Assembly: GCA_963576735.1 (NCBI GenBank) | Contig: OY755173.1 | Coordinates: forward strand, 7,968,873-8,032,872 | DNA length: 64,000 bases | Source of the DNA: Bedellia somnulentella | Taxonomy: Eukaryota; Arthropoda; Insecta; Lepidoptera; Bedelliidae | Direction: 5' to 3' | Shown here: positions 12,801 through 27,024 of the stretch, in pieces | How positions within the stretch are numbered: the first letter of the stretch is position 1 | Layout of the letters: each line of letters begins with the position of its first letter | Notes under the pieces: generated by a model | The model's input: only the letters and a program-made list of their open reading frames with translations | Told to the model about the DNA's origin: nothing | Database searches by the model: none | Made by a program: the position numbers and the translations under genes

Positions 12801-13750
12801 TTATTTTTTGTAAGTGTATTTCTTTCTTTTACTTTTAGGTGACCTCACAATTTCTTGGACGTCAGCTACTGCTTTGCTTAGAACCCATTCTCTATCTCTA
12901 TCTCTTTTGTTTCTTCTCTGAGGCTTCGTTACTTCTAAGGTTGACAAGTCTCGGCGATATATACTTCGGAGTCGATTATATTCAGCTATTGCTGTCTCCT
13001 GAGCTTTGATACTACTAAAATTCACATTTATTAAATGTGATCCACCCAAACTAGTCACTCTTGAAAGGGCCACGTATGCTTGACCACAGGTAAAAACTGA
13101 AGAACCTATATCCATCATTGCATTGTTTAGGCTCAGCCCCTGACTCTTATGTATGGTTATAGCATAAGCTATGCATATGGGGAATTGTTCCCGATGAACA
13201 TAAGCTCTAGATATAATTTCAAATTTGGTTTTAACAGCACAAAGTTCATATGAGTGGTCATTACTAAATTTGATTACTATTGTTTTTACTTTCTTTAGGT
13301 CCTCAGGATCATACTTTACACTTTGTGCTATACCGATGGAACCATTAACTAAACCTAAACTAACGTCAATATTTCTTCTTAGCATCACTTTTGCTCCTAT
13401 TTTTATTACTATATACTCCTCTAGGCCTGCTGTCATAGAGACATCATCTTCATATTTTCTTATGCATTCGCGAACCCTTTTCAATAGATGTTTCGGACAA
13501 TCTATACTATCTCTGGCAGTAAGTTGTATTTCGGGGGTGGAAAGGGAATTAAGCATAGCACTGTTTAATTGTTGGCACATATTTTTGGTAGGTAATAAGC
13601 AAACTGTATCATCAGGAAGATTCGATAAATATTGGATAATTTCACGTAATCTGTTTTCATTGGAATGAGAATTAAGAGTAATTAATCGACTAGTTAATAA
13701 ATCACGATCTTTTTGTAAAGTAACACCTAATCTTATTCTTTCCTAGGATC
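12801..13750 (-). pseudogene. Pif1-type (Helitron-like) helicase, C-terminal part
   Basis: On the minus strand the frame is open from about 13748 to a stop at 12801-12803; the first ATG is at 13580. Landmarks in order: LPTKNMCQQLN near the N-terminal side, then IGAKVMLRRN, then YAITIHKSQGLSL (superfamily 1B motif V region), then GQAYVALSRVTSL (motif VI), then AIAEYNRLRSIYRRDL and a basic tail. These are hallmarks of Pif1-like helicases, and the EYNRLR segment is like that of Helitron transposon proteins. Walker A and B motifs are absent, so helicase activity is lost. A one-base frame change near 13737-13747 separates it from the OTU-containing frame upstream. Confidence 0.8.
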
Positions 13751-14090
13751 ATCACCGAATGATCCCTGCAAACGACCATTTTGGTAAACTAGAAAAATAA
13801 AGAGATACAATGCAGCGGCCGCTTTAAGTTCGGATACGGATCCATAGGTGGTTGTTTTCAGCATTGCAGCTGAATACATATCTGCATTGATATAAACGTC
13901 TCCACGTTCGTCGCAGGTATAGACTAGCATGTCATCCCAATTCTCCACTACATAATGGACGACAGCACGCCTAATATCGTTTGACGACTGAAAACTCCCA
14001 TACATGCTGTATGACAACGAATGAAATAAACACGACCCATCTCCAGGAATAGAGATGACTCTGGACAAAGGTCGCCATTTATGTACAATA
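13733..14090 (-). pseudogene. OTU-like cysteine protease domain, N-terminal half
   Basis: The minus-strand frame contains ISIPGDGSCLFHSLSY, the OTU signature with catalytic Asp and Cys (D-G-S-C). It continues with IRRAVVHYVVENWDDM and YGSVSELKAAAALY. The frame is open from about 14087, where an in-frame TGA precedes it, and the usable start is a TTG at 14068, so the true start is lost or further upstream. The catalytic His region is missing, and the frame passes into helicase-like VYQNGRLQGSFGDD and then a stop. OTU domains occur in some animal Helitron-type proteins; here the domain is followed directly by the end of the helicase, which implies an internal deletion. Confidence 0.7.
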
Positions 14091-15035
14091 TTTCACGTTC
14101 CATTACACTATATTTACAATTACTTCTGTAACAATAGGGCTTAAACTTATATATATATGCAAACTAAATAGAACTAAACTAACTAACAAATAACTAACTA
14201 AATAAATATATATCTACTAACTTACAAACTATAACTAAACTAAACTAAATAACACGTAAAGTTCTCCGAATATATCAATTATCACTACAATATTTTTTAG
14301 TTTCGAATTGGGTTTTCATAGACAAATGGCGCTATCAAATGAAAATTATCGAATTATTTTGAAGTACTACTTACACTGCGCTTTATAACGAAACCATAGC
14401 GCGATTCAGACAGGTACAACGCCATCTATCGAGCGCGCATACAATATTTATCGCAATACAATGGAGTTTTAGCTTTATTAATTTAATTAACTTTATGTAT
14501 TAATTTGTATTAATGATAGTCTATGTATTACATTTATATTATTCTTTTCTATTCTATGTATGTATTCATCCAACGAACGAAGTTAACAATGCAGTCAAAA
14601 TCCATACATAATGTTCTTGCCAAACCGCAAATATAAAATTGTTTTCTATGGCATATATTTTTTTAATGTTTTTATAATTTTTCCTTTATATGTGGCTAAT
14701 GACCTATCTTGGTGCAAAATTTGAAGTTTCTAAGTCTGCTAGAAGTACCTTAGATTTTTGATGATCTGTCGGTGAATCAGTGAGTCAGTGAGTGACAAAA
14801 TGGTGTAACTTTGATCGACCGTAACTCCTAAACTATTAATTCATTTGGCGTGTAATTTCGAACTTCAGCTTGTTCTAATGCCTACTATTATTCACCGAAA
14901 ACCTAAACTCCTAGCTTTGTCCACGTCGAAGATATAGGGGGGGCGAAACAGCCGCGAACCGCTTCGAGAAAAGATGGTACGACCGTGCCCGTTTTGCTCG
15001 AGACTTGGCAGGGGCACTACCGTGCCCCCAGATTT
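14091..15035. other. non-coding, possible flank of the helicase element and other degraded repeat
   Basis: 14150-14270 is a run of CTAAATA/ACTAACTAA-type low complexity. 14750-14860 carries GTGAATCAGTGAGTCAGTGA followed by GACCGTAACTCC, phrases common in lepidopteran retroelement 3' regions. 14970-15030 has a short inverted motif around GGGGCACTACCGTGCCCC. No coding region is supported. Confidence 0.4.
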
Positions 15036-18260: not shown

Positions 18261-18493
18261 TTGCAGTGTGGCGCCGTCTTAGAATGTCACTACCCCTTTC
18301 TACCCAAGGGTGTTGTCAGAGGCGACTAAGGACTGTTTTAAGTTGTTTTTACGGTGGGAGACTAACGATACTTTATTTCTACCATTTGGTCCCCTATCAA
18401 CTTCCAAATGAGGCTGAGGAGTTTATAGCTCTAAAGCTCTGGTTACCCCTTTTTGCGATTTATGGCCGTGAGTATATATAAGTATGTATGTAT
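18261..18493 (+). mobile_element. Family A SINE-like retroposon, diverged
   Basis: GCCGTCTTAGAATGTCACTA head, CAGAGGCGACTAAGG, then a deletion of the GATGCGGTTGGAGACCC block, then CTCTGGTTACCCC and GTGAGTATATATAAGTATG tail. Confidence 0.65.
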
Positions 18494-18580: not shown

Positions 18581-18734
18581 ATAAAGATAGCCGGTTGATT
18601 GTGATGCAATGCGAGCGTGGAGTGTGCAGTACTTACGTGTCTGTCAGTCAGTGGCAGCATATGTTACGTTGGTGTAGTGTCCGTTCGTTCGTGTGAGTCC
18701 GTGTCATAATCATAGTAGCAGTTTAGTAGAGTTT

Positions 18735-19175
18735 AATATAACGTAAAGCTGAAAAACAAAGCACGCGATTCGCTTGCAACGAATAGCTTGCGTTTAATAA
18801 ATATACACACATCTGACGCAATTCTGCCCGCGGCCGTTGCCATTGCCATGGCCGTTGCCAAATCGCTACAGCTGAATTTAATAAAAGCGAAACATGCAGC
18901 TGTGCAGCGTCTCGCTCTCCCTCACGCAACCACGACAAGCGCACGGGTGACGTTGTACCGTTGAGAGAGCGAGACGCTACAAAGCACGAATCTCGTCTGC
19001 GCAATTATCGCGTCGCGCGCCACGCTCGTCTCGCTCGGCCTCGCAATCGCAACATAGCGTTGAAGTCAGTGCGATTTAATTTCGTTGGCAGTAGCGTCGA
19101 CTTACTTTGTGGTTTTATAGTGTTTCGTGTAAATAAGTATTGGAATTAATGAAAGTTCGACAATAATTCATAGAA
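18735..19175 (+). promoter_or_regulatory. GC-rich promoter-like region of BED exon
   Basis: This stretch is much richer in CpG than its surroundings. It holds a perfect 14-bp inverted repeat, AGCGTCTCGCTCTC (18906-18919) and its complement (18965-18978), and a third GTCTCGCTC at 19028-19036. TCAGTG at 19066-19071 fits the arthropod initiator and would give a 5' UTR of about 108 nt before the ATG at 19176. No TATA box is evident at the expected distance. Promoter function is inferred from composition and position only. Confidence 0.45.
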
Positions 19176-19391
19176 ATGCCGAGAGAATACCGTGATGTGC
19201 CAATATGGAACTTTTTTGAAAAGTCTAGTGATGGTGATAGAGTAGCGACTTGTAATTATTGTCATCGGCTGCTGTCATATAAAACAACAATTACGAATCT
19301 AAAGTGCCATTTAAAACAAAAACATATTTCAGCATACCATACCTTTCTAAACTTAAGTAAAGGTCCGGATTCGATTGCTGCGCTTCCAACG
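19176..19391 (+). CDS. BED-type zinc-finger coding exon (candidate alternative first exon 1a)
   Basis: The ATG opens 72 codons. Residues 11-50 fit a BED zinc finger: W11, F13-F14, then C26-x2-C29 and H45-x4-H50 as metal ligands, with TNLKCHLKQKH around the histidines. BED fingers bind DNA and occur in chromatin boundary factors (BEAF-32, DREF) and in hAT transposases. The frame stays open to 19523, but a strong donor ACG|GTGAGT at 19391/19392 ends the exon in phase 0, which matches the acceptor at 25031. Spliced there, it would give a 195-residue BED-linker-BESS protein. Alternatives are an independent short gene, the 115-residue unspliced reading, or a captured hAT fragment. No hAT catalytic sequence lies nearby. 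Confidence 0.65.
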
Positions 19392-20309
19392 GTGAGTCAA
19401 CTGCAACAGCAACCTATTCCTGGTTTGTCTGTTCGTCGTGATGTCGAAATTATTATTGGTGGAGGACAAGCATGTGGTGATATGCCTGACCTCCACCATT
19501 ATATTTTTTATCCGGTATTATAATATTTGTGACCCATAATCATAAATTATAATTCGTATTTCTTATCTGTTTGGACATTAAATAAAAGTAAATGTAATAT
19601 TTTTCACACAACATACAATACATACATATACTCACGGCTATAAATCCCTAGCAGGGATAGCAAGAGCTGAGTAATTAGGATTTTTAACACATATGGGTAT
19701 GAATAAATTGAAGCTCATGTAAACGCAATGATTCAATGTTGTCCGGTCTTGGGACCTAAGCGTAAGCGGATGGGTGGGATGAAGAATAGTTTTATTATAA
19801 GTAATTGAAGTGTATAAATATTAATTCAAAGTTCATTGTTTTATCTCTTTGATATCGTTATAACATAGCGTCTACAGCCTGTTATCAAAATGTAGCCGTT
19901 TATCTCACCATAGCAGTCACATGTATGTGAATCACGTGATATACGTAAGATCGAACGCACAAGAAAATTGCACCAAAGAATAATGAATCAACCATAGATT
20001 TCTACATTGATGCAAAAATATAACCTCATATACGCTCCGTCGCGTCGTAGTCCGATAAAAAAATATCCTCAAGGTTGGTCGTACAAAATAACGATTTTTT
20101 CAATAAGTAAATAATACTGTATGAAATAAACTTTAAAGATTCATCAGCGACCATTTGTTCGGCAGACTGAGCTGGGTTGAATTTGAGTTAAAACTTCGGA
20201 TCAGATGATTAAAAAAATAATTTGCCTAGCGGCTGTAAACAACACGTTGCCGCTTCGAGTCCCAATACTCTCATTGAGACTGGTTTAACAAGTTGTCTCG
20301 CTCTAACTC
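19392..20309. other. non-coding between exons 1a and 1b
   Basis: No further BED-linked coding sequence is visible beyond the unspliced read-through to 19523. A minus-strand Family A tail fragment lies at 19612-19680 (TACATACATATACTCACGGC then GGGATAGCAAGAGCTGAG). The remainder is AT-rich. Confidence 0.5.
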
Positions 20310-20523
20310 TAACAATATGTAATGCGCGCTCGCTCACGGTAGCCACGCGCCCGCCGCGCCGCTTTGCCGCCACCGCCGCCGCTCGCTGCCGCGCCGGCCG
20401 GCAACCGCGTAGTAGCTAAACGCACCCCTCCCCACATGCCCCCTTCACCTCCTCAGTCTCCCGAGAGCGCGCTCCGAAGTTAGCTGCAGATTGCGTTACG
20501 TACGATTATTTAGTTTCGCCGTC
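20310..20523 (+). promoter_or_regulatory. GC-rich promoter-like region and 5' UTR of MADF exon
   Basis: A CpG-rich block (CCGCCGCGCCGC, GCCACCGCCGCCGCTCGC) contrasts with the AT-rich surroundings. GTCTCGCTC at 20295-20303, just upstream, repeats the motif of the BED promoter region. TCAGTC at 20453-20458 fits an initiator and would give a UTR of about 70 nt. The same spot (CCTCCTCAG|TCTCC) also looks like a 3' splice site, but joining from exon 1a in phase 0 meets a stop after eight codons, so a BED-MADF fusion is not supported. Confidence 0.5.
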
Positions 20524-21012
20524 ATGGATTTTACAAACGATGATTGGAACACAATAACAATAGTAAAACACGAATTCGATTCAGACGAAGAAACGAGTGA
20601 TACCTCCCTTAACAAAGACCCGGTGCCCTATACATGGAATTCGGAAAATACGTTGCAATTTATTAGATTACTCCAGAATGAAGGCAGAGAATTATGGGAC
20701 AGCACGAACCCACTATATTATGACAGAAAAGCGCGTTCTGTCAAAGTTAAACACTTCGCAAATATTTTTAATTGTACTGCTAATCAAATTTTAAATGAGA
20801 TTTCACATTTAAAAAATCAATACCAAAGTGAACTAATAAAACTAGAAAGGGATCGTGGAATTGATCCAAACGATCAAGAAGATATTGAATCTAGTTGTTG
20901 GGAATATTTCGATGCTTTATCGTTTTTGTCACCCCAGCAGGAATCGACGGAAGCGGCTGCATCATCCAGTAGTAATGTCCAAATAGCTCTTAGTGCTTAC
21001 GAAGTACCTGGG
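20524..21012 (+). CDS. MADF-domain coding exon (first exon 1b) of MADF-BESS protein
   Basis: The exon encodes 163 residues from the first true ATG. An acidic lead (DSDEETSD) is followed by a MADF (Adf-1, Myb/SANT-like) domain at about residues 40-136: TLQFIRLLQNEGRELWDS, then PLYYDRKARSVKVKHFANIF, then a helix with ISHLKNQYQSELIKLERDR, ending CWEYFDALSFL. These show the family pattern of an L-I-x2-L/V start, W-D/P-L-Y-D and a final aromatic W-Y/F. A serine/alanine-rich stretch follows. The exon ends GGG|GTGAGA in phase 0, matching exons at 25031 and 26822. MADF proteins are DNA-binding transcriptional regulators, usually partnered with a C-terminal BESS motif, as here. Confidence 0.8.
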
Positions 21013-21432
21013 GTGAGAGATGGTTTTTTTTATTTATGTATTTATGCCAGATAAGTTTTCCATATATGTATCTGGAACAACTTCAAACAGACAGAATTTG
21101 GCAAGCATTACATTTGGGATGATAAGTTTTTACCTGTTGGTCCTAATCGAATACTCATTTTGTTTTTGATAGCAGATCTTGTATGTGGCCTTGGATGTAA
21201 TCGGCGGAAACCAGCCTTCCTATATGAGATAAAATATGAAATATTCTATGTTTTATTTATTGTTTATCTTATTTTAATAACTATCGGGTATAAAGTAGGG
21301 AATCTGCGTGGCTAGTACGAGCGGCCTATTATCTAGATATCCCGTGGTATAAAACAGATAAAACGCATACTAAAAGCAAAAAAATCCAAAGACTAATCTG
21401 TAAGTCTTAGACTTCGTGGAGGAAAAGAGAGT

Positions 21433-23463
21433 GGGCTTTTTTCATTTTAAGGCGACATGTTCGAAATGGAAACGTAAATTAAGTACAACGTTAATTTTGA
21501 ATATACTTAACTTTAGACGGTAAAAGAAGGTATATAGTATCAATAATTTTTAATTAAAACACATTTAGACTGTAATTATTTGATTAAAATCACTTTTTGT
21601 GTGGCCATGACTAAGCAAAGTTCCATTTAGTCACATTACACAAATGGATGTAAATCAAACAATTCGGAATTTCATGTAATAAAACAATTTTGATTGTAAT
21701 CAAGACACATCTTATATTAGAAATTTAACAACATAATTGTTATTATTATCATATAAAATCACATTTTTGACAAATTTTAAACATTTCGTCACTTTTTGTT
21801 TTTGATCACTAGACATTTTTAGTGTTAAATATGTATTTTAACCAACAAATTAGGAAAAAAACATTATTGCCAAAAGGATACACTAAGTATATTCCTAATA
21901 AATGTTAATTTACAAGTAATATTCTTTAAAAATCTGAGAAAATAGTTAAAAACAACACTGTCAATATAAGGACAGTGACTAAGTAGGAACTCAATATGTA
22001 CGAAATGGAATTACAAAGCTAAGTTCACAGCGCTACAAATATCACGACATAATTATTTAGAATCATTCAGTCATTGTTATTGTACTATATTTTTATTAAT
22101 ACTAAATAAACAATTTTAGTAAAATTAAATTTAAATAAAAAAAAAAATCTTACAGTTCTTCGAAACTTCTACTAATATCCTCGTTTCAACTTTCAAATTG
22201 TATCAAGTGTGAATCTAAAAGAAAGGCATAAAGTGTTAATATACGGGTGTTTCCGGAACTTGAAATAATATTGTCAGATTCGTGTTGCGAGAGATACCTT
22301 GAGTCAGGATTAGTAGGTGAAATAATAAAAATCTGACTTTTTTTTTCGACTCCCCATACAAATTTATAACTTAGTTCCAACAGCGCTAGTGTCTATGTGG
22401 AGTCGAAAAAAAATGTCCCACTTTTATTACTTATTTTACTGATCAATTTTACCGATTTTAATCAGGGTAACCCAACATGAATCTGATAGGTAATATAATT
22501 TCAACTTCCACAAACACCTGTATATAATTACCTATCGAACTTAGTTTTAATAGGAGTTTTTTCTTGCCTTCGTTGTACCAAAAAATAATATAATTCATTC
22601 ATTTATTTTAATGTCTGTTAATCAAAGCAATGTGGCTAATGCTTTACAGTTCCATTTCGTCACTTTTTGATTCCGCTTATACATCACAATACGAAATGGA
22701 TGTGACGAAATTCTATTTTTTTTGCAAATTATTACGTTTTAGAGTGAAAAATTGGTTTAATATCAAATTTAATCGTTGAAACCCATAAACTAATAACTAA
22801 ACTACAATTTAATTTATAAATAAGCTAAAATATAACTTTACTTACCTCAAAATCAAATTAATTAAATGGAAAACAATTTTTGGTAACAGATTACGCACTA
22901 CTTATTATTCATGTTTTAACGAGACATTTAAGTTACACCAAACAGAAAAATTATGCCAGCACGCAAACAATGTTGCCTATATTATAAAACAAATTTAATT
23001 TTGGGGTAATTCATTAGTTAAGCTAATCAAACCCACCTCTGAACGAAAGGGAATTCCACCTTTCAGAAATCGTAGGACAATCGAAATTGTAGTTTTTTTC
23101 TATTTTTTTCTATTGTAATGGTATAAAAAGATAACTAAATTTGAATTTTGACTATATTCTTAATTAAATAAAATAAAACAACACATGAGCTTTGGAGGAA
23201 AATAAACTAAAATTTCTAAACCAAAGTTGGGAACATAGTCGTAGGACACGTATAAAACACGATGTTTTTTTCATTGAAAACACATTTTTTAAGTTATTTA
23301 TATAATAATGTTACTTTTTATGTCTTAAATGTATTAAAAAATGCTTAAGAGATTAGAAAAACAGCCAGAGATGGTATTTCTATGAATTTTGTTTAACAAT
23401 ATTTGCTTTCAAAGTTGAAGGACACGAACATTCTTGGTGGTCGCCCTAAAATGAAAAAAGCCC
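21433..23463. mobile_element. non-autonomous DNA transposon, 2.03 kb, TIR GGGCTTTTTTCATTTT
   Basis: The left end GGGCTTTTTTCATTTTAAGG (21433 on) and the right end complementary to GGGCTTTTTTCATTTTAGGG (ending 23463) form TIRs of about 24 bp, flanked by a possible 4-bp duplication GAGT (21429-21432, 23464-23467). The motif CGAAATGGA / TCCATTTCGTCAC recurs at 21468, 21617, 21785, 22007, 22648 and 22692, and TCGTAGGACA at 23071 and 23240. No transposase frame is present. The superfamily is not clear; a 4-bp duplication is compatible with several. Confidence 0.6.
22242..22522. mobile_element. MITE with TA duplication, nested in the 2-kb intronic element
   Basis: The ends TACGGGTGTTTCCGGAACTT and the complement of TACAGGTGTTTGTGGAAGTT pair over about 33 bp. 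TA dinucleotides flank both sides (22240-22241 and 22523-22524). An internal inverted pair TTTTTTTCGACTCC / GGAGTCGAAAAAAAA (around 22338 and 22401) gives a second hairpin. It is likely Tc1/mariner-type by its duplication. Confidence 0.6.
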
Positions 23464-23493
23464 GAGTATTATTGAGAATAGGAGAAGGAGCCT

Positions 23494-23890
23494 AGCTCTT
23501 AAATTCAAGAAAACTTAGTACCGTATACCGTTATCTCATTCTAACCAATATCGTGACGATAAAATAGCGCTCGTACTAGGCCTCTTGCATAGCTATTACG
23601 AGCGTCCTTTAACTAGATATCGCGTGATATAAAACAGCCATCCCATATGCATTTACCTAGTATAGTATACCGTCATCAGAAGGACAAGCACGAGCCGTGT
23701 TTAAACTAGTTATCACGTGGGAAAAAGCAGCCATCTCTTACGCACTTACTTAGTATCGTATACTGCCATCTCATTCTAACCGTTATCTAGTCGATCAAAT
23801 AGCGCTCGTGCTTGCTATACACTGATCTCATTCTAACGATATCGTTATCGCTCGTTTCGATCATGTAGCGCTCGTACTAGGCCTTTTCTG
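23494..23890 (+). mobile_element. MITE D cluster (AGAAGGGCAAGCACGAGC termini), several copies
   Basis: Complete copy at about 23675-23822: CATCAGAAGGACAAGCACGA at the left and GCTCGTGCTTG at the right, with CGTGTTTAAACTAGTTATC and TTAGTATCGTATACTGCCAT inside. Degraded parts lie on both sides (23494-23640 and 23820-23890), sharing ATAGCGCTCGTACTAGGCC. Another degraded piece is at 21305-21375. These are short inverted-end elements without coding capacity. Confidence 0.55.
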
Positions 23891-23970
23891 ATGTATTAGG
23901 GCAGCACTGGACCACAATATAATATGGATAGTTCAATTAGTTTTTCTATTATAATAAATCGTTTCCATTA

Positions 23971-24179
23971 GCTGTATAGTTTCGGCATAGAATAGCATTT
24001 CCCCATTTCTACCCATGAGGGTGCGTAAGAGGCGACTAAGGGGCTTTTTGGGCGATGCGGTAACCCTTATTTTACGAGCTTTTCCCCACCAACGCTCCAA
24101 AAGAGGCTGAAATATTATTTATTCTGAAGCTCTGGCTACCCCTTCTAGGGATTTATAGCCGTGAGTATATGTATGTATG
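23971..24179 (+). mobile_element. Family A SINE-like retroposon
   Basis: GCTGTATAGTTTCGGCATAG head, GTAAGAGGCGACTAAGG, a deletion around GATGCGGTAACCC, then CTCTGGCTACCCCTTCTAGG, GCCGTGAGTATATGTATGTA tail. It lies in the first intron of the MADF-BESS gene. Confidence 0.7.
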
Positions 24180-24604
24180 CAATACTATTACAATCGATAT
24201 TGTATGTCTACCCCAAGATAATGTGTTACACCCACATTATGTTACGTCAAATTAGCATTGATTCTTTCACCTATACTAGTAGAACTTTAAAGAAAATATT
24301 GTAATGCAAACTTTTATTACTATATTTGTTTTTTTAAGAAGAGATTGAAGATGACTCGATGTAATTATTTAAGATATCTTTAAAGATGCCTTACATGAAC
24401 GGGATAGTGAAAAAACACAATTAATGTAATTTAGTTAATTATATGGGGAGCACCTCTTTTTTTATTTGTTCTAATACCTTGAAGAATTATACAGTTTAGA
24501 GCTTATAGTCGTTGCACGTAGTCTTATTCATTTCGGAAATTAACGCTGTGACGCACGGACAGACACAAAAACAGACATGACAATTGACAAAACTAATAGA
24601 GTTT

Positions 24605-24772
24605 TGAGACAAGTAAAACTTAGCCATGTGGGTTTCCTCACGATGTTTTACCTCACTGTTAACAAACATGATAAATTAACCACACATGTCTTTAGTAAAT
24701 TTAGAATTTGAACTCACGCCTGTCTGTATTGATGGGCGGTCGTTCTACCCATTTAACTATCACGGCTGTTAA
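24605..24772 (-). mobile_element. SINE B, 3'-truncated head part
   Basis: On minus: CCGTGATAGTTAAATGGGTA (A box region), GTGAGTTCAAATTC (B box), then body to CACATGGCTAAG. The 3' half is missing. The head has the TACAGACAGGCGTGAG variant shared with the copies at 9.7 and 16.5 kb. Confidence 0.65.
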
Positions 24773-25030
24773 AGACTATTTTCTTAATAAACCAAAATAC
24801 CAAAAAACCCTGTTTTTTATGTTTTACTCGTAATTATCTTGCGCTCGGAGTATTGTCATATTGTGAAGTTGCGTACTCGCTGCTCTATGGGCAGCTAGTT
24901 TTGCGTCAAATGGTTTGGCGCTACTTATTTCTGAGATTTGTCCAAGGACCTGACTTCCATTTTGTTTCAAATTCGATGACTACACTACAAAATTGTCAAC
25001 ATATTGTTGTAACATAATATTGTTTTCCAG

Positions 25031-25270
25031 ATTTCAAAACCGGAAGATAACCCGAAATCAGAACCAGATAAGAGTCAACCCTCAACTTCATTTTTGGGCA
25101 GTATACCATCTGGTTCGAAACGAACCCCTGTGAAACCCAAAGAAAGAGCCCAGCTAGCCTCTTGTTCCTGCCCCCCGCCTATTCCTGCGGCATCACAGCC
25201 CATGCACTGGCCAGACGAACCAGCAGTGCCTAGAATACGGCCTAGCACTAGCAATCCTGATGAATGCCAG
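25031..25270 (+). CDS. shared exon 2 (Pro/Ser-rich linker) of MADF-BESS gene
   Basis: 80 codons between TGTTTTCCAG|ATT and CAG|GTGAGA, both splice sites close to consensus and both in phase 0. The product is a disordered-looking linker with KPEDNPKSEPDKSQPSTS, a basic KRTPVKPKERAQ patch, CSCPPPIPAA and IRPSTSNPDECQ. It has no catalytic domain. Such linkers join the DNA-binding domain to the BESS motif in this protein family. A stop lies shortly after the donor, so the exon needs splicing. Confidence 0.75.
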
Positions 25271-25304
25271 GTGAGATCTTTATGACTCTTTTATAGAAAC
25301 CAGA

Positions 25305-25444
25305 AGGGCAAGCACGAGCCGTGTTTAAACTAGTTATCGCGTGGGATAAAGCCGCCGCCATCTCTTACGCACTTACTTAGTATCGTATACTGCCATCTCA
25401 TTGTAACCGTTATCGTGTCGATAAAATTGCGCTCGTGCTTGCCC
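25305..25444 (+). mobile_element. MITE D, complete copy
   Basis: Terminal inverted repeats GGGCAAGCACGAGC and GCTCGTGCTTGCCC are exact over 14 bp. The interior has CGTGTTTAAACTAGTTATCG and TTAGTATCGTATACTGCCAT, as in the 23.7-kb copy. It begins 34 bp after the exon 2 donor. Confidence 0.65.
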
Positions 25445-25469
25445 AACAGATGCGCAAAAAGTGTATTTT

Positions 25470-25568
25470 ACTAATAAATAAAAGAAAAGAAAAATTTCGA
25501 CACCGGTTTCTTTCCTTTATTTATTTGTAATAATCCCCACATGAGGTTTTCATGAACGAAACATTCTT
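25470..25568 (-). repeat. small hairpin retroposon, copy 2
   Basis: AATAAATAAAAGAAAAGAAA and TTTCTTTCCTTTATTTATTT form the hairpin, followed by TAATCCCCACATGAGG. It is flanked by a 14-bp duplication AAAAAGTGTATTTT (25456-25469 and 25569-25582). It matches the copy at 3952-4085 in design and sequence but has a shorter hairpin loop. Confidence 0.65.
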
Positions 25569-26398
25569 AAAAAGTGTATTTTGTTGTTAGCGCGAAATCA
25601 AATCATACATTTATTTTACCGGACTTTAAAGAATGAGTTGTGATTTTCAACTTATCTTGTCGTATGCATGCGCTTATGTTTTGCATGTAATATAATTGAT
25701 TAACTCATATCTTGAACCGCCGAACCCAATCATACAATTAATATCGTTGTCTATGTATTGATAACCCATGTGTCCTTAGATATATATTCTATTTTTAAAA
25801 ATAAGCAATACTATGTTGATCTTTGCAAATAATGATCGGAGTATTTTTTCATAAATTCCAATATGGTTATCGAAATCATGGGAATTTCCGATTTCTATCA
25901 TTTCTATATTATTAAAAACTACTAGCATGAAGAAAGGATAGTTACGTGAGTATAGTGCACTCCAAAAGGGATTTTTAATCTAATGTTAATGCTATGATAC
26001 ATTAATATACACATATGCTCAAAACTCAATCGCGAACGGGTTGAAAAAACATTGATGCATCTACAAACTAATTGCAAAGGTAAAAACTGACACCAAACAA
26101 ATACGAAATACACCTTCTCTTATTAAATCTAACTATAAAGTTAACACTACGAAATAAACTTTAAAATGAAAGATAAACTGACTGTTAACCAATGAAAAAT
26201 AACAAAAAATAATGAAACAAATCCAAAGCGTTATGTGTATATTTGCATACGTTTAAATGAATGTACTTCAGGGAATGAAAATAAATCTATAATAATAAAA
26301 ACGGAACTGTTTTGAACACCACTGCTAAATTATTTAAAGATACTCTTTCGTGTCCACGTCCAAACGCACATATTTAGGTTAAATTTCATCAATTTTAT

Positions 26399-26765
26399 AA
26401 CATAACATAAACGTTCACGCCGAATATCCCCGAAGGGGTTGGCAGAGTACTAATACTTCTGAATATCACGTGACTTTGTCACCTGGTGTTCAGAGTACCC
26501 ACGTTTTGCATGGACAGTGTACTCACGTGATAGGGGGCAGGCCTGTCGCCGTTTTGTACGAATACACTGTCACATGACTAAGTACAACTCAGCCATGTGG
26601 GTTTCCTCACGATGTTTTCCCTCACCGTTAACAACCATGATAAATTAACCACACATATGTCTTTAGAAAAGACAAATTGGTGTAGGCCCGACCCAGGATT
26701 TGAACACTAGTCGTTTGCACGATAACCGAGTGTTCTAGCCACTGGGCTATCACGGTTGATCATCA
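26399..26765 (-). mobile_element. SINE B, full length, close to exon 3 acceptor
   Basis: Minus strand: GTGATAGCCCAGTGGCTAGA (A box), GTGTTCAAATCCTGGGTC (B box), complete body and CAACCCCTTCGGGGATATTC, GTGAACGTTTATGTTATG tail. A 14-bp duplication TTCATCAATTTTAT (26385-26398 and 26766-26779) flanks it. Its edge is 56 bp upstream of the exon 3 splice acceptor, and the duplication restores the original intron end. Confidence 0.85.
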
Positions 26766-26821
26766 TTCATCAATTTTATTCTAAGCAAAATGTTCCTAAA
26801 ATTCTCCATTGCTCTTTCCAG

Positions 26822-26953
26822 ATATTTGGTGATTTTGTAGCATCCGAATTGCGAAGTTTACGTACAGATGCATTAAGAAAAAAATTGAAAAGATTAATAA
26901 AGAAGGCTATATTAGAAGCTGAAGAAGAGGAAGACGAGGCACGTTATAATTAA
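26822..26953 (+). CDS. shared terminal exon 3 with BESS-like motif
   Basis: 43 codons and TAA after CTCTTTCCAG|ATA, phase 0. The product starts IFGDFVASELRSL and continues LRKKLKRLIKKAILEAEEEE. This fits the BESS motif of MADF and BEAF-type proteins: F-G-x-x-V/A-x-E-L, two short helices, then a basic helix ending A-I-x-E-A. BESS mediates protein-protein contacts, including self-association. Together with exons 1b and 2 it completes a 286-residue protein. The acidic EAEEEEDEA end is normal for the family. Confidence 0.8.
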   Translation: MFGDFVASELRSLRTDALRKKLKRLIKKAILEAEEEEDEARYN

Positions 26954-27018
26954 GACTTAGAATGTAGTTACATTCACTCAAAGAGACTAAATAACTTTAA
27001 AATTATTTTTTATATTTA

Positions 27019-27024
27019 AATAAA
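27019..27024 (+). terminator. polyadenylation signal of MADF-BESS gene
   Basis: AATAAA lies 66 nt downstream of the stop codon in a short AT-rich 3' UTR. A T/GT-rich stretch (CGTTTATGTTTTC) follows within 40 nt, as expected for cleavage. It ends the transcription unit just before the SINE at 27.1 kb. Confidence 0.65.

What the first reader, a model, noticed from the sequence alone, without database searches (positions are those of the whole stretch)
18735..27024. One BESS gene with two competing DNA-binding first exons: BED finger or MADF
Two coding exons, each behind its own CpG-rich, TCAGT-bearing region, both end in consensus donors in phase 0 (19391 and 21012). Both can splice in frame to the same phase-0 linker exon (25031) and BESS exon (26822). 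One locus could therefore make MADF-linker-BESS (286 aa) and BED-linker-BESS (195 aa). Drosophila BEAF-32 uses alternative first exons to attach different BED fingers to a shared BESS tail; exchange of BED for an unrelated MADF fold would be a notable variation and would hint at a BEAF-like regulator in Lepidoptera. Seen: exons, phases, splice sites. Known: BEAF-32 design and the MADF-BESS family. Inferred: that exon 1a joins exon 2.
Basis: partly seen in the sequence, partly recalled or inferred. Interest (0 to 1): 0.88.

Follow-up and report, generated by a model that had tools for sequence, protein, structure and literature searches.

The report
Jumping-gene relic beside a MADF gene
The supposed second starting exon of this moth or butterfly regulator gene lies inside an old transposon copy that landed just upstream, so the gene looks like an ordinary conserved one, although related species' gene models hint that it sometimes borrows DNA-binding pieces from transposons.

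Summary
MADF-linker-BESS is a conserved lepidopteran gene: of 39 proteins sharing its tail, 32 carry the MADF domain and 0 a BED finger. The BED "exon 1a" is something else. Window 18724-19910 is a 1.19-kb hAT transposon copy: a left end shared with 36 other matches in this genome, a right end shared with copies that have perfect 8-bp target duplications, and its own 7/8 duplication. Its best genomic relative runs colinear through the claimed donor towards hAT transposase. The "donor" is transposon coding sequence and at chance level. The BED copy shows no sign of constraint (dN/dS 0.84; 8 derived residues against 1). So the BED-linker-BESS isoform is not supported, though chimeric transcripts cannot be excluded without RNA. 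One lead survives: gene models of this gene in four other Lepidoptera join non-MADF, transposon-like DNA-binding N-termini to the same tail.

The parts
18716..18723 (.). left target-site duplication TAGCAGTT
   Evidence: matches the right one 7 of 8; 8-mer pairs at this spacing reach 7/8 at 55 of 62000 window positions
18724..19910 (+). hAT-family DNA transposon copy, internally deleted, 1187 bp
   Evidence: left end shared with 36 other matches of 69 in the genome; right end shared with L012, L015, L017, L018, which have perfect 8-bp duplications; closest copy L002 carries BED plus hAT-like transposase sequence; L032 with the same left end has Dimer_Tnp_hAT E 9e-14
19176..19523 (+).
19392..19397 (+). 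GTGAGT, the claimed donor; reads Val-Ser in the transposon frame, as does GTAAGT in L002
19858..19910 (+). right-terminal block of the hAT element
   Evidence: 85-87% identical to the terminal ~53 bp of the L015, L017 and L018 elements; alignment
19911..19918 (.). right target-site duplication TAGCAGTC
20524..21012 (+). first coding exon of the host gene, MADF domain
   Evidence: Pfam PF10545 E 1.4e-11; relatives
25031..25270 (+). linker exon, phase 0 both sides
   Evidence: colinear with relatives
26822..26953 (+). last coding exon, BESS-like tail IFGDFVASEL...
   Evidence: 71% identical to the Galleria tail over 42 residues; not recognised by Pfam

Best explanation
Two unrelated things sit side by side. 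(1) A conserved lepidopteran MADF-linker-BESS gene, coding exons 20524-21012, 25031-25270, 26822-26953, whose protein most likely binds DNA through the MADF domain and pairs with itself or partners through the BESS tail (mechanism inferred from the family). (2) A hAT transposon copy, 18724-19910, inserted about 0.6 kb upstream of the MADF start codon. It kept its two ends and the start of its transposase ORF (the BED finger) and lost the rest of the transposase; the BED ORF, the CpG-rich leader and the in-frame GTGAGT are transposon sequence. Shown: transposon identity, ends, target duplication, gene conservation. Inferred: that the BED ORF is a decaying relic and is not used as a first exon of the gene.
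For: The 871-bp query 18690-19560 gave 69 matches in the genome (a lower bound; only the best candidates are scored), 36 of them to the left-terminal block 18724-18801 and most of the rest to a subterminal block. In all ten copies lined up, similarity ends, by eye, at a shared TAG. L012, L015, L017, L018 end in CCACTA with perfect 8-bp duplications; the window copy has the same right end with a 7/8 duplication. L002 is 85% identical over 19170-19481, through the 'donor', and continues towards hAT-like transposase. P0015 of Euphydryas has the same kind of BED finger (66%) followed by the same transposase-like region, and its contig (11.0 Mb) is not that of the species' MADF-BESS protein P0029 (22.8 Mb). 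dN/dS 0.84 between window and L002; polarised with P0015, 8 residues derived in the window, 1 in L002, 7 unresolved. 0 of 39 tail proteins have BED; 32 of 39 have MADF. The Galleria protein matches MADF, linker and BESS exons here in order, and its linker and tail match nowhere else in the genome at E<=0.001.
Against: The BED ORF is still open for 115 codons with its zinc ligands, despite 15% divergence from L002. The donor is a good consensus in both the window copy and L002 and is phase-compatible with the linker exon. Gene models of this gene in four other species do join other transposon-like DNA-binding N-termini to this tail. The last three bases of the right end seem lost and one base of the target duplication differs; of the other six copies lined up, five show no convincing right end and duplication and L014 shows an exact 8-mer repeat with a variant end; L032 shows none in the piece fetched. 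dN/dS rests on 25 differences and sums over both lineages. No RNA data were available.
Confidence: 0.85

Rival explanations
1. Transposase capture: the hAT insertion supplied a promoter, start codon, BED finger and in-phase donor, and a BED-linker-BESS protein is made and used beside MADF-linker-BESS.
For: Open BED ORF, phase-0 donor and phase-0 acceptor; models of this gene elsewhere with Myb, basic and Tc5-like N-termini on the same tail; capture by insertion near a host transcript followed by exonisation through alternative splicing is a published model (passages of PMC12062965, citing Cosby et al. 2021).
Against: No sign of constraint; donor at chance level and present in another copy of the element; 0 of 39 tail proteins with BED.
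Confidence: 0.1
2. The BED ORF is a stand-alone small gene, unrelated to the MADF gene.
For: ORF with stop ending at 19523 and an AATAAA at 19577.
Against: Similarity to L002 stops near 19481, so the end of the ORF looks like a deletion product; no sign of constraint.
Confidence: 0.04
3. A BEAF-32-type insulator gene in Lepidoptera with alternative DNA-binding first exons.
For: Shared plan of alternative N-terminus plus BESS tail, if the BED junction were real.
Against: The BED exon is a transposon copy; PMC5094011 (passages) found no BEAF-32 in its panarthropod transcriptomes and judged it probably unique to Drosophila.
Confidence: 0.01

Closest known systems
hAT superfamily DNA transposons (BED finger plus transposase)
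   Same: 8-bp target duplications, short terminal repeats TAGTGG...CCACTA, BED finger at the N-terminus, Dimer_Tnp_hAT in a relative with the same left end
   Different: the window copy is internally deleted and keeps only the BED start of the ORF
MADF-BESS transcription factors of Drosophila (Stonewall and CP60, seen in the listing; Adf-1 recalled)
   Same: N-terminal MADF, linker, C-terminal BESS-like tail
   Different: tail not recognised by the Pfam library; function in Lepidoptera unknown
BEAF-32A/B of Drosophila
   Different: there both alternatives are BED fingers and the two proteins are known; here the BED piece is a transposon copy with no shown junction
Host-transposase fusion genes (Cosby et al. 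2021, seen only as cited in passages of PMC12062965)
   Same: transposon DNA-binding sequence near a host gene with compatible splice phase
   Different: no fusion transcript shown here

Membership tests
hAT transposon copy (window 18724-19910) | 8-bp target-site duplication | tested here: met
   7/8 in the window copy; perfect in L012, L015, L017, L018
hAT transposon copy (window 18724-19910) | terminal sequences shared with other copies of the family | tested here: met
   left end; right end (last three bases seem lost in the window copy)
hAT transposon copy (window 18724-19910) | hAT transposase domain in the same family | tested here: met
   Dimer_Tnp_hAT E 9e-14 in L032, which shares the left end; transposase-like frames in L002 resemble P0015; no Pfam hit to the short L002 piece nor a transposase family in P0015
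MADF-BESS family | N-terminal MADF domain | tested here: met
   PF10545 E 1.4e-11
MADF-BESS family | C-terminal BESS domain | tested here: inconclusive
   no Pfam BESS hit; tail homologous to P0022, named BESS domain-containing by UniRef
BEAF-32-like gene | BED finger spliced to the BESS tail | not testable with these tools
   no RNA; indirect evidence against
BEAF-32-like gene | same architecture in related species | tested here: not met
   0 of 39 tail-bearing proteins have a BED finger by the precomputed Pfam column (candidates limited to 0.55-1.75 times 228 aa)
Host-transposase fusion gene | transposon-derived exon under constraint | tested here: not met
   dN/dS 0.84; 8 to 1 derived residues; small sample
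Host-transposase fusion gene | chimeric transcript | not testable with these tools
   no transcript data held

The most novel reading that the evidence does not exclude
This MADF-BESS gene is a repeated landing place for transposase capture in Lepidoptera: its tail exon accepts transposon-derived DNA-binding first exons (Myb/SANT, a basic region, a Tc5-like helix-turn-helix, and here a hAT BED finger), so that different species, and isoforms within a species, put different DNA-binding domains on one conserved BESS tail.
Probability: 0.15. Interest if true: 0.7.

Novelty: new member of a known kind. Interest (0 to 1): 0.3.

Why it matters
As it stands it mainly corrects a false lead: an in-frame, phase-matched DNA-binding exon upstream of a BESS gene is a transposon copy, and no BEAF-like insulator need be assumed in Lepidoptera. 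If the recurrent-capture reading of the gene is right, it would be an invertebrate case in which one host tail repeatedly recruits new transposon DNA-binding domains, testable with existing RNA-seq.

Tried and rejected
BED finger as a conserved exon of this gene: rejected on transposon ends, target duplication, relaxed substitution pattern and absence from relatives. BED plus tail protein in other Lepidoptera: searched three ways, none found. None of the three listings marks a protein as encoded by the window itself, so the species' own models could not be used, and the length limits of the search could hide long fusions; one search scored only 2 candidates. LAEFQ-type micro-exon in the intron 21013-25030: none found in the three forward frames with up to 4 of 9 substitutions. 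In the alignment the corresponding residues (LSAYE) lie at the end of the window's MADF exon, so the intron position seems not to be exactly the one at which relatives' isoforms join; this counts mildly against carrying the relatives' isoforms over to this species. Other alternative first exons at this locus: the Myb, basic and Tc5-like N-termini of relatives match elsewhere in the genome, none of the scored matches in the window (one search scored 150 of 172 candidates). Plasmid collection search with the locus: no match, as one would expect for an insect locus. Pfam on the basic-region ORF L035: no family. Cosby et al. 2021 is not held. Literature searches: no title or abstract start in the listings reports alternative N-termini of this gene; the five gene identifiers tried appear in 0 papers; most subscription papers are not held. 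Structure prediction was not run; it would not separate the rivals.
Full report
What was claimed and what is there. The four coding pieces exist at the stated places with the stated phases. Exon 1a is 19176-19391 (ATG to ...LPT, then GTGAGT), exon 1b 20524-21012 (MADF, then GTGAGA), linker exon 25031-25270, last exon 26822-26953 ending in TAA. Joined, they give 195 and 286 aa. Pfam recognises the BED finger (7e-12) and the MADF domain (1.4e-11) but not a BESS domain in the last exon. CpG observed/expected is 1.4-1.7 in the 500-base stretches upstream of both first exons, but similar values occur elsewhere in the 17-28 kb stretch that I profiled. TCAGT occurs at 18644, 19066 and 20453 between 18.5 and 21 kb.

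The MADF gene is real and conserved. A search with the tail of the Plodia relative found 39 proteins at E<=0.01; by the precomputed Pfam column 32 carry MADF (PF10545) and 7 do not. Of the 7, two (P0012, P0032) look by eye like shortened MADF forms, one (P0043) is a short unnamed fragment and four have other N-termini (below). All rows that name an organism name Lepidoptera. An alignment of the window protein with 10 of these relatives is colinear from the MADF domain to the end, 38-41% identity overall, with a nearly invariant DECQ.FGDFVASELR block in the tail. In the window's own genome the Galleria protein matches the three exons in order at C3:7989489, 7994026 and 7995685; the other 8 of 11 matches cover the MADF part only and lie elsewhere. 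The first search also found a beetle protein, P0022, named BESS domain-containing, that shares the tail.

The BED exon is a transposon. A protein search of the own genome with the 72 residues gave 27 matches; the best after the window itself is C27:3477446-3477661, 78% identical over all 72 residues. DNA of that place (L002) is 85% identical to window 19170-19481, without a break at the claimed donor: ACG GTG AGT in the window and ACG GTA AGT in L002 both read Thr-Val-Ser, and the shared frame goes on with QLQQQPI. L002 then continues, in broken frames, with sequence like the transposase part of the Euphydryas protein P0015 (72% over its residues 135-235), which itself starts with the same kind of BED finger. 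The CpG-rich leader is shared with L002 too, partly inverted, and with many other places: of 69 matches to the 871-bp query, 36 are to the left-terminal block (18724-18801) and most of the rest to a subterminal block; the list is a lower bound.

The ends of the element. Ten copies with the terminal block were lined up; by eye all lose similarity upstream of TAGTGG (TAGTAG in the window, position 18724). Four of them, L012, L015, L017 and L018, end 393-1064 bp further in CCACTA and are flanked by perfect 8-bp direct repeats. For the other six, searched with one mismatch allowed, L014 has an exact 8-mer repeat 362 bp on with a variant end, and L010, L013, L016, L019 and L020 show no convincing right end. 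The terminal 53 bp of L015, L017 and L018 match window 19858-19910 at 85-87% (alignment). The window copy is flanked by TAGCAGTT (18716-18723) and TAGCAGTC (19911-19918), 7 of 8 alike; pairs that good at this spacing occur at 55 of 62000 positions of the window. Its last three bases appear lost. L032, a copy with the same left end (88% to 18724-18798), has a 458-aa frame with Dimer_Tnp_hAT (9e-14); no right end or duplication was found in the piece of it that was fetched. I therefore read 18724-19910 as an internally deleted hAT copy inserted about 0.6 kb upstream of the MADF start codon.

Is the BED ORF kept by selection? Between window and L002 the 72 codons differ by 19 nonsynonymous and 6 synonymous changes: dN/dS 0.84, or 0.71 from codon 8. 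With P0015 as outgroup, of 16 differing residues 8 are derived in the window, 1 in L002 and 7 cannot be assigned. That is what relaxed evolution looks like, though the sample is small and rapid change under selection is not excluded. The frame is open and the zinc ligands are intact, which is weak evidence the other way. The in-frame donor is not remarkable: 7 of 63 ORFs of at least 80 aa in the window, this one included, have an in-frame GTRAGT, and a 118-codon frame has one by chance with probability 0.09.

Relatives. 0 of 39 tail-bearing proteins carry a BED finger, and a search with the BED part alone returned only P0015, of 2 candidates scored. P0015 is listed on a contig of 11.0 Mb, the Euphydryas MADF-BESS protein P0029 on one of 22.8 Mb, so they appear not to be neighbours there.

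A lead that survives. Four of the 39 tail-bearing proteins have other, non-MADF N-termini: Plodia isoform X2 (Myb_DNA-bind_5, 2.7e-20), Galleria isoform X2 and Amyelois isoform X2 (a basic region without Pfam family), and Aricia (HTH_Tnp_Tc5, 0.0036, below cut-off). In the three species with both forms the shared part begins exactly at LAEFQ. Relatives of these N-termini are repeated in the window's genome: 87 matches for the basic region, many in long frames; 21 for the Myb region; 23 for the Aricia one, of which the one inspected (L038) is a DDE_1/HTH_psq transposase frame. None of the listed matches is in the window. The Galleria and Amyelois basic regions are 54% identical over 127 aligned residues, against 73% for their MADF parts, which fits a shared exon but also two insertions of one transposon family. 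These are gene predictions; whether RNA supports each junction I could not see, and in the window the residues that correspond to LAEFQ lie in the MADF exon, so the joint is not at quite the same place. They make transposon-started chimeric transcripts at this gene plausible and are the reason why I do not put the BED-tail transcript at zero.

Compared with what is known. BEAF-32A and B are made from one gene and differ in an N-terminal 80 aa with a BED finger each; the BESS domain mediates their interaction (PMC5021357, abstract and passages). PMC5094011 (passages) considers BEAF-32 probably unique to Drosophila. Transposon insertion near a host transcript followed by exonisation of its coding sequence is a described route (PMC12062965, passages). 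Our locus has the ingredients of the latter but no evidence of the product.

Verdict. Ordinary pieces in a suggestive arrangement: a conserved MADF-BESS gene with a hAT relic upstream.

Noticed in passing
relatives P0003, P0006, P0023, P0038: Gene models of this MADF-BESS gene in Galleria, Plodia, Amyelois and Aricia join non-MADF, transposon-like DNA-binding N-termini to the same tail at LAEFQ.
   Followed up: partly
P0019 (Aethina tumida), P0018 and P0020: A beetle protein with a similar BED finger (58% to the window's) and, by eye, a BESS-like C-terminal stretch; two unnamed proteins share its N-terminus with other tails.
   Followed up: no
window 12801-14092 (-): Fragments with a Pif1-type helicase domain and an OTU protease domain, probably a Helitron remnant.
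   Followed up: no
L002 2180-3216: The closest hAT copy is interrupted by what looks, by eye, like a non-LTR retrotransposon.
   Followed up: no
window 18435-18485 and 19618-19668: Inverted pair (80% complementary) of a short dispersed-looking repeat, one arm inside the hAT copy.
   Followed up: no
window 18846-19095 versus L002: A subterminal stretch of the hAT copy is inverted relative to L002 and to shorter copies.
   Followed up: partly
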